Part shown: piece after piece, positions 9,945 through 21,275 of the stretch
Position numbering within the stretch: the stretch's first letter is position 1
Layout: every line of letters starts with the position of its first letter
Origin: Ecdyonurus torrentis
Lineage: Eukaryota; Arthropoda; Insecta; Ephemeroptera; Heptageniidae
Direction: 5' to 3'
DNA length: 64,000 bases
Assembly: GCA_949318235.1 (NCBI GenBank)
Contig: OX439128.1
Span: 47,796,530-47,860,529 of the forward strand
The notes under the pieces: generated by a model
Databases searched by the model: none
The model's input: the letters and a program-made list of their open reading frames with translations, nothing else
Told to the model about the DNA's origin: nothing
Made by a program: the position numbers and the translations under genes

Positions 9945-11334
9945 ATGCCTTGCAATATGGTAAGATATTTCACTGCTCAATAATTTTTTTTTCTTTTTTA
10001 ACTATGTCAATCATAATCAGTTGAAATTTTTATTATTAACAAGGAATCTTTCTTTGCCTAAACTAATTTTAAGGTTGCTTTTTTCTTTCCCAAATAACTA
10101 TTAAAGTTTGCATTCAATGAAAAAAAAATCAAGTATCTTAATCTTCTTAAATGAAGTGGAACCCATTAACTAAATACGTACTGTGATCACAAGGATCACC
10201 TTCACCACTACTTTTCTTGAATATGGAAGGAAAAAAAATAGAGTGTAATTTTATTTCATATTCTAGAGTAATTATATTGTACTAAATCTATTGATATGCA
10301 AATTTCTAATGTTTTAGTTAATTAAGTATTTTTAATTAATTTTTGAAAATTGGAAAATGACGTCACGGTCGGTAACTTTGCATGTGGGCATAGGAAAAAG
10401 TTACCAACCGTGTCGTCCTTTCCACATTTCAAAAATTAATAAAAATATATTTGATAAACTCCAAAATTAGATGTTCGCATATCTATCAATTCAAGACAAT
10501 ATCCTCTTGTAGAATATGTAATAAAATGACTCCCTACTTTTTTTCTTTTGCTTCCCCATTGATTGTTGTGAATTATATATTATACATACATTATATGATA
10601 TGAAATGAAAATAAAATCTAATGACAAACTCATGATTGCATACATGAAAATTATTACAAATTTATATTATATAATTACAGGAATTTCTGTGCATTAGTCT
10701 TCTCTTGGTTGGAATATGTAACGCAAGAATAATTAAACCTGCTTATGTTGTTCCTAACTCACAACACACTCCAGAACCAATGATGGCTCGACAAGAAGAC
10801 GCAGGAGATGGTAACGAAGAAAATAATTTTCCTGAAGATCAAGGACCACCACCTGATGAACCAGAACCTCAGGAACCGCCGGCAGAAGAACCACCTGCAG
10901 AAGAACCACCTGCTGAGGAACCACCTGCAGAAGAACCACCTGCAGAAGAACCACCTGCTGAGGAACCACCTGCAGAAGAACCACCTGCGGAAGAACCACC
11001 TGCAGAAGAACCACCTGCAGAAGAACCCCCTGCAGAAGAACCACCTCTGGAGGAACCACCTGCAGAGGAACAACAACCCGAACAGCCTGCTGGAGAACAA
11101 CAAGCAGCACCTGAAGAAGCACCTCCTCAGGAAGAAACACCTCCACCAGAGCCAGAAACTGCACCAACTGAAGAAACACAACCAACGGAACCATCATCTG
11201 AAGGCGCACCTGAATCTGATACAACAATGACGACAAAGTCATACCATATGTCAAAACCTGGACATGAGGGCAGCAAAAATAAAAGACGGCGAGTGGGATG
11301 GAATAGACAGAGTATTTTAATGGCAGGAGACTGA
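9945..11334 (+). CDS. Secreted PPAEE-repeat protein with GWNR C-terminus (2 exons, 222 aa)
   Basis: Exon 1 is 9945-9959 (MPCNM) with donor G|GTAAGA; exon 2 is 10681-11334 after a TACAG acceptor; the intron is phase 0. Together they give a signal peptide (core EFLCISLLLVGICNA) ending near residue 20. After an acidic N-terminal part there are 13 five-residue units, 12 PPAEE and one PPLEE (nt 10876-11070), then a region rich in Gln, Pro, Glu and Thr. The C-terminus is Lys/Arg-rich (SKNKRRR) followed by VGWNRQSILMAGD and the stop. That tail matches the ends of the genes at 14910 and 20263. The first exon is short, so its exact start is an inference; the signal peptide it completes supports it. 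AATAAA at 11500-11505. Probably extracellular; role unknown. A structural (silk, cuticle or matrix) protein or a peptide precursor are both possible. Confidence 0.8.
10335..10440. mobile_element. Foldback MITE-like hairpin in an intron
   Basis: An imperfect palindrome of about 106 nt lies in the intron of the PPAEE gene. The left arm starts ATTAATTTTTGAAAATTGG and includes GACGTCACGGTCGGTAACT; the right arm is its reverse complement with a few changes. The loop is about 20 nt and contains GCATAGGAAAAA. That word also occurs in the larger inverted-repeat elements at 47439, 48239 and 56025, suggesting a related non-autonomous DNA transposon. Confidence 0.6.
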
Positions 11335-11623
11335 ATATACCTTGTTTGATTATTTACTTCTCAATTTATATTTTATAAAAATGGTGATATAAAAAAAAAA
11401 GCATGAATGTTGTGCTGCCATAAAAAACATAAAATAATATTAAGTCCTTTTTTTTTTTTTTTTTTTTTTTTTTCATTTAAAAAATGCGAAAAGTTTATAA
11501 ATAAAGACTTATTTGGCTTTATATATAGAACTAAAAATTAAGATACAATAATTTATTATAATCTTCTGTGTCACAACATTCAATTTTGAAGATACAGATT
11601 TGTGTGTAAAAATGTTTATTTTC

Positions 11624-11693
11624 TCCCCCCCCCCCCCTCTCTCTCTGTCTCTCTCTCTCTCTCTCTCTGTCTTTATCTCTCTTTCTCTCTCTT
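11624..11693. repeat. Poly-C/(CT)n tract
   Basis: A run of C followed by imperfect CT dinucleotides with interruptions. Confidence 0.85.
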
Positions 11694-12052
11694 TATATAA
11701 TAATGTAATTTTACGAATATTTTGAATTTTTTACATCCCTTCATTTAATATTATGTCACTAGCTACTTAGTACGTAAAATGATTTAGATATAATTTGTCA
11801 TTGAATTGCATAGTTTTGGTCAAATAAAGAAAATTATGTAAAGCAAATAAAATCTCTATTTATATTTTAACAATATCTCCCATGAATATTTAATTTTGAA
11901 TTTCTAAAACAATAATAAGAAGAAGAAGAAAAAAGGGGGAAAAAAAGAAGAAGAAGTAGAAAAAGTTGCTTTATTCGCTACAATATAATTTTTGGTCATT
12001 TTCCATCGATTGTTTATGAAAGAAATTAAATAATATCATTATATAATGAATT

Positions 12053-12172
12053 ACACACACACACACACACACACACACACACACACACACACACACACAC
12101 ACACACACACACACACACACACACACACACACACACACACACACACACACACACACACACACACACACACAC
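12053..12172. repeat. (CA)n microsatellite
   Basis: Uninterrupted AC/CA dinucleotides of about 120 nt. Open frames reading it as Cys-Val repeats are artefacts. Confidence 0.97.
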
Positions 12173-18354: not shown

Positions 18355-18500
18355 AAACATATTGCTAGTGTTTTGAGATCTCAAGGGATCGGATGTTGTT
18401 GTTTTTCTCTTCTCAACGTTTCGCGTCCAACGTTGGGTGCATCTACAGAGGGGAGAACAACACGCGACCAACATGGGATGCAAAACGCATTTAAGAGCAG
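18355..18500. repeat. Unclassified GC-richer repeat-like block
   Basis: Locally GC-rich sequence with AACGTTTCGCGTCCAACGTT, a near-palindrome, embedded in AT-rich DNA. The open frame across it has no splice context or homology that I recognise. Probably a fragment of a mobile element. Confidence 0.3.
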
Positions 18501-20220
18501 AATAACATCATCTGCTTCAGTTATCGCATTAAAGTCCAAAACACTAACAATATTTTACTACAGTAAAGTTTAAATTTTATTATTATTATTTATTTTATTT
18601 GAAGCAATCTGTAAGACTTATGCCAGCTAGGATAATTATAATGATCCAGGCAGTTCATACCCCCCCCCCCCCCCAAAAAAAAAAAAAGATGCATTACTTC
18701 TGTTACGAATCCTAACTTATTTTGAGATAAACACTCATGAGTTATTATAAGCAGCTAAAATAATGCATTTTATCATTTTAACATAAGCTATTTTAGTTTA
18801 AAATAGATTAAAAATTTTTAAACCAACTGAAATTAGCTACTTTTAATAATTTGCTCAAATAATCAGCTACTCCTAATAACTTAAAAGTGTATATCTTAAA
18901 TAAGTTAGTATTCGTAACTAAAGTAATGCACCAGTTTTTAGAGTGTTGAGGTGTTCTACGTCTTTAAGACATTATAATTTTCTGAAGTTGAGTGTGTAGT
19001 TTGCAATATCAATATCACCATTTGATTATTAATTATAATATAGGATCCACAAGGTCAGATGTAGCTAGCTATTTTTAAAAAATAATAATTTTTTTAAATG
19101 AGTTCCTTAATAACGTAATACATTATTCTCATAGCCCTCAATATTGATGGTAAATAATTATCAAATATATATATATGTTGTTGTTGTTGCTGTTGTTGTA
19201 ACACACACATATGCGGGTTTTGTGTACATATTACTGTATTTTAGCAATTGAATGCTATTTTAAATCATTTTTCATATTAACTGTTATAAATCAACTTTCT
19301 TTATCACAACGTAGACCCCGCACTTACACTATTTTGGGCTCCACATACCAAATCTGTGTAAGCTCGGACCAGTGCTCGTTAACGTGAAATCGTGTTTCCG
19401 TTTTAACGGCCGCACATGATGGCAGCACCCAATTAAGGGAGCATATATGGTCATATGCCATCATGTGAGTTCATGCTACGCTTCAGCACTTGAATGTGTA
19501 TGAGACTTTTTACAGTCGATGATAATATCAAACTGATAATTATAATTTGATAATTATCAAATGATAATATTCATCTTCATTTATTTTGAAGTGTAGAGAG
19601 AAAAAACGTCTAGGTTACCAACTTCATACTATAGTAAAAATGCAAATCTTGTGAATGTAAATACTTAAAGTTCAAGTCCTTCACTCCACTACTAATTAAT
19701 ATATTACTAATTATACTATCAATTACTGTGGCAATATAGCCCCACAACTTAAAAAAATAAAATAATAACAAGCTATATAGTATTGCTAGAAAATACATGC
19801 AGCTTATAGCTTTGTAAGAACGACAACAATTAATATGATATAATATATAATATTGCAGAACTATTATATTTAAGAAATTATCAGAATGAATCATGTTTTA
19901 TTACATTAATTACTAATAATGCAATATCACAAACCAATATTTATTTTATTATAGCAATCATATATTTATTTAAATTACAAAAGAACTACATCAAAAATTA
20001 CCATACAAAAGCTTATAATTTGAAGAAAAAAAAATCACAGCAAAATAATTCCGTTTACCAGCACGTATAAATAATAGGAAAACCCATAACAAAAAAATAT
20101 CGGTTGACGTGTTCAATAATAACTACGTAAGCAGTGAACCATGGATCAGGTAGGGAATGACCAAATAAGCGTCCTTGTGCATATTATAATATAAATTTTC
20201 ATTTTTGTTTCCTGTGTGCC

Positions 20221-20226
20221 TATAAA
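20221..20226 (+). promoter_or_regulatory. TATA box candidate for the PQQEQ gene
   Basis: TATAAA lies 42 nt upstream of the start codon at 20263, so a start site 25-32 nt downstream would leave a very short 5' leader. Confidence 0.35.
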
Positions 20227-20262
20227 CTTCTCTCGCAGCACTTTATATTACGATACGGCATC

Positions 20263-21275
20263 ATGAATATAGCTGTAGTAAGTTCTAATTTTTAACTTTT
20301 AAATGTAATTATTTTAATTTAAAACTTTACTTTCCTTGCTTAAAGTAATTAGACCTCATTAAAGAAAGTGTTTCTCTATAACTATAAGAATATATTTTAA
20401 AGCTCATTTATAATTCTTTAATTTATATTAATATAAAATAAAATGATGATCTATATATTTAATGTAACTTTTTTTTTTAATAATTAATTCAATATTTAAA
20501 TTCATATTATTGTTCATATTTATATTGTTGTAAATATTCAAAAATATATAAAATAGACACTAAAACTATTTAATTCATAATATTTTTTATGTAATAATTT
20601 CAGATATGCCTGTTTTTTTCACTTTTTGTGGTGTGTAACGTAAAGGGTGTCCCAAGTAAAGCAAGAACAATAAAACGTGAGTCTGAAGCAGAACCAAATG
20701 GTGTTGAAACTGATGAAAATTCTCCTGATGCAGATGGAAATGAACAAGTTAATAGTGGACAAGATGGGCAACTAGCACAACAACAGGAAACGCCTCAAGA
20801 ACAACCTCAACAAGAACAGCCACAACAAGAACAGCCACCACAAGAGCAACCCCAACAAGAACAGCCACAACAAGAACAACCCCAACCAGAACAACCACAA
20901 CAAGAACAAATTCCTCAAGAACAGCCTCAGGAACAAACACCACCACCAGAAGAACAAACAATGCAAACAGAACCAATGCAAGGTGAAGATCCAAATCAAC
21001 AAACATCTAGTAGTGATCAAAATCCAGATACACAAAGCACAGATCAATCTACTACAGAATCATATCAGACTGACCAAACTACGCATAGTGGTGGTGGCGG
21101 CGGTGGTGGTGGTGGTCACCGTACAACTAGAAGATCTCATACTCATAGATCAAATGGTAGAAGAAATCAAAGACCCACAACAAAAAGTAAGGGACAGGGT
21201 GTTACTTTTCTAACGTTAAGAAAGATAAATCGTAGTTTATGGAATCGTAAAACAGCTATTGAATCTGATGACTGA
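20263..21275 (+). CDS. Secreted PQQEQ-repeat protein with WNR C-terminus (2 exons, 228 aa)
   Basis: Exon 1 is 20263-20277 (MNIAV, donor GTA|GTAAGT); exon 2 is 20604-21275 after AATTTCAG; phase 0. The joined N-terminus is a signal peptide (ICLFFSLFVVCNVKG core). The mature protein starts VPSKARTIKRE, followed by an acidic segment with DGNE, as in the PPAEE gene. A Gln/Pro/Glu repeat array comes next (units PQQEQ, about nt 20797-20938), then a Gln/Thr/Ser stretch and a nine-residue Gly run (about 21090-21117). A basic HR/RR-rich region leads to SLWNRKTAIESDD at the stop. Trp lies 11 residues from the end, exactly as in the genes at 9945 and 14910. It is probably a paralogue of the PPAEE gene whose repeat unit has changed. 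AATAAA near 21575. An upstream ATG at 20141 with its own donor could be an alternative first exon. Confidence 0.8.

What the first reader, a model, noticed from the sequence alone, without database searches (positions are those of the whole stretch)
9945..21275. A shared C-terminal GWNR-type tail on three otherwise unlike secreted proteins
The genes at 9945-11334, 14910-17032 and 20263-21275 have unrelated repeat bodies (PPAEE; SSKITEILTQ plus poly-Gly; PQQEQ). Yet they end in GWNRQSILMAGD, GWNRHSVLGVGD and LWNRKTAIESDD. Trp sits exactly 11 residues from the stop in each, with basic residues just before (KRRR, DKR, INR). Such conservation at one end of fast-changing proteins points to a functional tail: a sorting or cross-linking motif, a receptor-binding peptide released at a basic site, or an anchor in a matrix. 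I do not recognise it as a known motif.
Basis: partly seen in the sequence, partly recalled or inferred. Interest (0 to 1): 0.75.

Follow-up and report, generated by a model that had tools for sequence, protein, structure and literature searches.

The report
Mayfly secreted-protein family sharing one tail
Three neighbouring mayfly genes for secreted-looking, repeat-filled proteins really do end in a similar short tail, most likely because they are old tandem copies whose repeats changed quickly while the last 14 residues were kept; the tail matched nothing in our searches elsewhere, and its job is not known.

Summary
The tail is real. Three two-exon genes (9945-11334, 14910-17032, 20263-21275) end in RVGWNRQSILMAGD, REGWNRHSVLGVGD and RSLWNRKTAIESDD. 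Among 8321 frame ends in 264 kb, G1 and G2 are each other's best match by far; G3 is a weaker member whose link needs the end-anchored register (not significant unanchored). All three share a 5-codon first exon and a phase-0 intron just before a signal-peptide-like core. A pattern for the close form of the tail has exactly two places in the 503-Mb genome, G1 and G2. Two protein searches with the G1 and G2 tails found nothing; a calibrating search shows that the database holds insects and points to a mayfly genome. Whether the bodies are related stays open: G1 and G3 match, but a tail-less gene elsewhere matches G1 as well. Best reading: a tandem family of cysteine-free secreted proteins, built like Drosophila Sgs glue genes, the tail serving as an assembly or docking end. 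A 13-mer released at the basic site is weaker: G3 lacks a dibasic site there and has one inside the tail. Function is inferred; ordinary in kind, new as a family.

The parts
9945..9959 (+). G1 exon 1, MPCNM, ends in phase 0 at a GTAAGA donor
   Evidence: sequence; donor score
10681..11334 (+). G1 exon 2: signal-peptide-like core, acidic PPAEE repeats, basic stretch KNKRRR, tail VGWNRQSILMAGD, stop
11290..11334 (+). G1 tail RVGWNRQSILMAGD and stop
14910..14924 (+). G2 exon 1, MRRAK, phase-0 GTAAAT donor
15287..17032 (+). G2 exon 2: signal-peptide-like core, Thr/Ser-rich 39-bp repeats, Gly-rich 21-bp repeats, tail EGWNRHSVLGVGD, stop
16988..17032 (+). G2 tail REGWNRHSVLGVGD and stop
20263..20277 (+). 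G3 exon 1, MNIAV, phase-0 GTAAGT donor
20604..21275 (+). G3 exon 2: signal-peptide-like core, PQQEQ repeats (15-bp unit), basic stretch, tail SLWNRKTAIESDD, stop
21231..21275 (+). G3 tail RSLWNRKTAIESDD and stop
12625..12651 (+). G4 exon 1 (MVNLSVFLQ), inferred from donor score; possible diverged neighbour of the family
13355..14263 (+). G4 exon 2: acidic Thr-rich secreted-looking protein, single Trp at -10, end GYSWFNFPFEFDY; membership unproven (C-terminus against G1: 112 of 2000 shuffles)
3650..3664 (+). G0 exon 1 (MRRCR), inferred from donor score; also a 5-codon first exon
4290..4592 (+). G0 exon 2: Ser-rich secreted-looking protein without the tail (ends YDRLVESF); neighbour with the same architecture

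Best explanation
G1, G2 and G3 are tandem paralogues in a mayfly: secreted, cysteine-free, low-complexity proteins. Shown: the tails, the shared short first exon and phase-0 intron, no cysteine in the presumed mature parts, two places only for the close tail form. Inferred: (1) they descend from one gene by tandem duplication; (2) the repeat bodies expanded and changed by slippage while the last 14 residues stayed under selection; (3) the products are co-secreted into an extracellular coat, glue, silk-like or cuticular material in which the body is a spacer and the C-terminus (basic residues, then Trp-Asn-Arg, then an acidic end) is the common sticker or docking end through which the different bodies join one assembly.
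For: Tails beyond chance on neighbouring same-strand genes, each with a 15-nt coding first exon, a phase-0 intron and a hydrophobic start of exon 2. Close tail form at two places in the genome, both ours, control pattern 0. Of the 9 residues identical between the G1 and G2 tails 3 have different synonymous codons, and the Arg of WNR is AGA in two genes and CGT in the third (codons printed). Five of five presumed mature proteins have no Cys; G1 and G3 pair an acidic body with a basic last 45 residues (0 of 20000 shuffles each). The same plan (intron in the signal peptide, variable repeats, kept C-terminus) is described for Drosophila glue genes (PMC6352337, passages). Weak: G3 is G1's best non-self match in a genome search (E 1.5e-9, 30% over residues 8-197) and beats shuffles (0 of 500 in two kinds), but see against.
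Against: No expression, tissue or protein data. Signal peptides are judged by eye. G3's tail similarity is lost without end-anchoring. The G1-G3 body match is not specific: a tail-less gene on another contig (L032) matches G1 with a higher raw score (241 against 216, also 0 of 500), the reverse search with G3 did not list G1 at E <= 0.01, and full G1-G2 and G2-G3 comparisons do not beat shuffles (98 and 157 of 500). Pre-repeat segments of G1 and G3: 85 of 2000; repeat units: 829 of 20000. Charge segregation fails for G2 (4483 of 20000), G4 (4212) and G0 (17432). None of 10 upstream pairs stands out. AlphaFold on the 72-residue C-terminus of G2 with 3 sequences gave mean pLDDT 58.8, pTM 0.14, so no folded module is supported.
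Confidence: 0.45

Rival explanations
1. Prohormone-type precursors: a convertase cuts after the Arg at -14 and frees a 13-residue signalling peptide; the repeat body is a spacer.
For: Arg at -14 in 3 of 3, giving 13-mers of equal length; KRRR in G1 and KR in G2 are convertase-type sites (site rules recalled). In G1 the only dibasic sites of the mature part are there.
Against: G3 has INR at that site, not a dibasic one, and a dibasic RK inside the tail at -9; G2 and G3 have further dibasic sites upstream. No amidation glycine, one copy per precursor. G4 has Gln at -14.
Confidence: 0.2
2. Shared ancestry only: tandem copies in which the tail is a neutral remnant while the slippage-prone body changed faster.
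For: Common gene structure; a short unique end next to unstable repeats can look conserved without selection.
Against: G1 and G2 keep 9 of 14 residues with 3 synonymous changes among them, and WNR is kept in G3 with another Arg codon, while the sequence just before the tail shows no similarity (1213 of 2000 shuffles for G1-G2). The numbers are tiny.
Confidence: 0.2
3. G1 and G2 are a true pair; G3's WNR at -11 is coincidence.
For: G3 scores 28 and 26 against G1 and G2 while one unrelated frame reaches 25 against G3; unanchored comparison is not significant; the body match of G1 and G3 is not specific.
Against: Chance of 28 or 26 is about 1e-5 to 2e-5 per comparison in a random model; same neighbourhood, same first-exon length and intron phase.
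Confidence: 0.13

Closest known systems
Drosophila salivary glue genes Sgs1/Sgs3/Sgs7/Sgs8/Eig71Ee (PMC6352337, passages seen)
   Same: Secreted proteins, several repeat-bodied, whose repeats diverge quickly while the C-terminal part is kept; an intron at a shared position in the signal peptide taken as a sign of common origin; a tight Sgs3/7/8 cluster.
   Different: Their intron is phase 1, here phase 0; the C-terminal segments listed there are 50-135 residues, and the authors suggest disulfide bridges from the many cysteines; here about 14 residues and no Cys. No sequence comparison with Sgs proteins was run; expression here unknown.
Low-complexity cuticular proteins, CPLC families incl. CPLCW (PMC12426002, passages seen)
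   Same: Low-complexity insect proteins named for a residue in a short conserved stretch; CPLCW for an invariant Trp.
   Different: CPLCW is reported there only from mosquitoes, with its Trp inside a conserved domain; no Pfam domain above cut-off was found here.
Neuropeptide precursors (general knowledge, recalled)
   Same: Signal peptide, acidic spacer, basic site before a short C-terminal peptide.
   Different: Site not dibasic in G3, dibasic inside the G3 tail, no amidation Gly, single copy.

Membership tests
Sgs glue proteins | phase-1 intron at the conserved place in the signal peptide | tested here: not met
   intron is phase 0 after codon 5 in G1-G3
Sgs glue proteins | conserved C-terminal segment of 50-135 residues; cysteines in the glue proteins | tested here: not met
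   kept segment is about 14 residues; presumed mature parts hold 0 Cys in 5 of 5 proteins
Sgs glue proteins | larval salivary-gland expression | not testable with these tools
   no expression data
Known Pfam family of any kind | Pfam match above the curated cut-off | tested here: not met
   exon 2 of G1, G2, G3, G4 and ORF 4287-4589 (and 5 other window frames): none above cut-off; Extensin_1 39 of 105 bits for G1 is low-complexity
CPLC cuticular proteins | family-specific conserved stretch and presence in cuticle | not tested
   no CPLC alignment was made; only review passages seen
Neuropeptide precursor | dibasic or furin-type site before the peptide in every member | tested here: not met
   G1 KRRR, G2 KR, but G3 INR
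Neuropeptide precursor | released peptide seen in tissue | not testable with these tools
   no mass-spectrometry data
Tandem paralogue family | adjacent, same strand, same intron position and phase | tested here: met
   G1-G3; G4 lies between G1 and G2
Tandem paralogue family | sequence similarity beyond the tail | tested here: inconclusive
   G1-G3 bodies match but not specifically; G1-G2 and G2-G3 do not

The most novel reading that the evidence does not exclude
The 14-residue end is a new kind of C-terminal tag in mayflies: one partner (a lectin, cross-linking enzyme or receptor) recognises WNR plus an acidic terminus and so recruits proteins with freely changing bodies into one secreted material, letting bulk properties evolve without losing assembly.
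Probability: 0.15. Interest if true: 0.55.

Novelty: new member of a known kind. Interest (0 to 1): 0.3.

Why it matters
If selection on the tail is confirmed, it gives a short handle by which fast-changing, otherwise hard-to-search secreted proteins of an early-branching winged insect order can be found and grouped, as the C-terminal parts do for Drosophila glue proteins, and a small peptide whose partner can be fished out. If not, it is an ordinary tandem gene family.

Tried and rejected
Wide spread of the motif: a loose pattern of the WNRK type (its Arg codon set also admits Ser) gave 164+156 places against 126+131 for its reversed control, near chance. The closer pattern (exact matches only, does not cover G3) gave 2, both ours. 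Own-genome protein searches with tail pieces found only the query itself for G2 and G3; as they missed the known neighbours, these negatives are weak. G1 whole: 193 matches, 150 of 614 candidates scored; I read 8 of its 15 loci (frames of at least 85 aa) and none ends in WNR. G3 whole: itself and one place at E 0.0097 (L046, not examined); G1 was not listed.

Body homology of G1 and G3: first taken as support, then checked and found unspecific, since the tail-less L032 matches G1 as well. I lowered the best reading from 0.50 to 0.45 and raised the coincidence rival from 0.10 to 0.13 for this.

Rfam: nothing at gathering cut-offs. PDB by sequence: best E 0.6. Structure: mean pLDDT 58.8, DSSP gave nothing. 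Upstream DNA: none of 10 pairs stands out. Downstream, 2 of 6 pairs exceed all 100 shuffles: G1-G4 is a CT repeat, G2-G3 an A-rich stretch of about 34 bases; I give these no weight. Charge segregation as a general property fails for G2, G4 and G0. Papers: GWNR with C-terminal and insect: 0; six 6-mers: 0; for families and mayflies, listings only apart from the passages cited. PMC5479533 (passages) did not help.

Not answered: own-genome searches with the G1 39-residue tail, G4 (54, 65, 71) and G0 (55). Other busy calls were answered later: 3, 8 (as 16), 26, 57 (as 61), 28, 31, 33, 36, 38 (as 44).
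Full report
What is there. Reading the DNA gives two-exon models: a 15-nt coding first exon (MPCNM, MRRAK, MNIAV), a phase-0 intron of 721, 362 and 326 nt, and a second exon that begins with a hydrophobic signal-peptide-like core and runs to the tail. In G1 the first Met within exon 2 lies past the hydrophobic core, so the short exon 1 is needed for secretion. Donor scores are 8.4, 7.4 and 5.8 on a simple matrix with recalled frequencies. 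The signal peptides were judged by eye; no predictor was run.

Is it beyond chance? Yes. The last 14 residues RVGWNRQSILMAGD, REGWNRHSVLGVGD and RSLWNRKTAIESDD share Arg -14, Trp -11, Asn -10, Arg -9 and Asp -1. End-anchored scores are 51 (G1-G2), 28 (G1-G3) and 26 (G2-G3); of 8321 frame ends in 264 kb, the best unrelated one reaches 19, 15 and 25 against G1, G2 and G3. The G1-G2 pair is secure (also 0 of 2000 shuffles unanchored). G3 is the weak member: unanchored local alignment does not separate it from shuffles (445 and 491 of 2000), so its place depends on exact register plus gene structure and position.

Whose genome. A calibrating protein search with a SmydA-8-like gene about 18 kb downstream of the window (L020) gave Ephemera danica at 59% and Cloeon dipterum at 50% as the best named hits, both Ephemeroptera; the top hit, 79% over 84% of the query, is an unnamed protein of the source 'lgn'. 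From this one gene I infer a mayfly; the species is not settled. The G3 tail was not searched there.

How far it spreads. In the 503-Mb genome a codon-level pattern that covers GWNR[QH][ST][IVM]L has exactly two places, G1 and G2, and its reversed control none. The looser WNRK-type pattern is near chance (320 places against 257). In frames of at least 40 aa the 100 kb on either side hold no further WNR at -11. G3-like forms elsewhere cannot be excluded: the tail protein searches found only themselves, and searches with the G1 tail, G4 and G0 did not complete.

Are the bodies unrelated? Open. For: G1's best non-self match in the genome search is its neighbour G3 (E 1.5e-9, 30% identity over residues 8-197), both have 15-bp repeat units, and the full comparison beats 500 of 500 shuffles of two kinds. 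Against: G1 matches a tail-less gene on another contig (L032) with a higher raw score (241 against 216), the reverse search with G3 did not list G1, and the separate pieces are only suggestive (pre-repeat segment 85 of 2000 shuffles; repeat unit 829 of 20000). So shared repeat composition may be all. G2's body is not detectably like either (98 and 157 of 500), yet its tail is the one closest to G1's. Two more neighbours have a similar plan: G0 (5-codon first exon, no tail) and G4 between G1 and G2 (9-codon first exon, its only Trp at -10); their first exons were inferred by donor score, and similarity tests did not single them out (the lowest, G4 against G1 C-terminus, 112 of 2000).

How it may work. 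Shown: common structure, no cysteine in the five presumed mature proteins, acidic bodies with basic C-termini in G1 and G3 (0 of 20000 shuffles each) but not in G2, G4 or G0. Inferred: disordered secreted matrix or coat proteins in which repeats set bulk properties and the kept end is the shared contact. The released-peptide reading is attractive for G1 (KRRR) and G2 (KR), and all three would give 13-mers, but G3 has INR there and RK inside the tail. The synonymous differences (CGA/CGC, GGA/GGT twice, AGA/CGT; codons) suggest selection, on very few sites.

Compared with what is known. The nearest match in plan is the Drosophila Sgs glue family: shared intron in the signal peptide, variable repeats, kept C-terminus (PMC6352337, passages). 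Membership is not claimed: intron phase, tail length and cysteines differ. CPLC cuticular proteins (PMC12426002, passages) are a second resemblance in kind. No Pfam family passes its cut-off. So the family looks new within these searches, but its kind, fast-changing secreted repeat proteins with a conserved end, is known.

Noticed in passing
93-1583 +: Thr-rich mucin-like open frame (496 aa) with KTTIGPSTT repeats, upstream of the cluster and on the same strand.
   Followed up: no
12625-14263 +: G4, an acidic secreted-looking protein between G1 and G2 whose only Trp lies at -10 (end GYSWFNFPFEFDY): possible diverged member.
   Followed up: partly
25299-25427 + and 26571-26699 -: The same 42-residue frame read on opposite strands 1.1 kb apart, near simple repeats: an inverted repeat, perhaps a mobile element.
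   Followed up: no
40814-43639 +: Several open frames (RVGDTTLVVRRRSKTPQAFS..., SPYPFEPAELLQRHEEKPYQLKLRPKK..., LGLVAGGAALGLGAAAVGRLLEH...) that look like exons of one secreted gene; the three frames scanned pass no Pfam cut-off.
   Followed up: no
L020:8465-9892: SmydA-8-like SET/MYND gene, 59% identical to Ephemera danica; used to place the genome among mayflies.
   Followed up: yes
L032 (G000:C20:16696264-16696704, minus): A 211-residue frame rich in EEKPAEE-type repeats with a late basic RRKR stretch and no WNR tail; matches G1's body as well as G3 does.
   Followed up: partly
17319-17350 and 21364-21397: An A-rich stretch of about 34 bases is shared downstream of G2 and G3; common remnant or chance in AT-rich DNA.
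   Followed up: no
L038, L040, L044: Long arrays that look like pentanucleotide repeats (CSALL / RGEER / SPLLS frames); many weak low-complexity matches may be the same kind of array, but only these were read.
   Followed up: no
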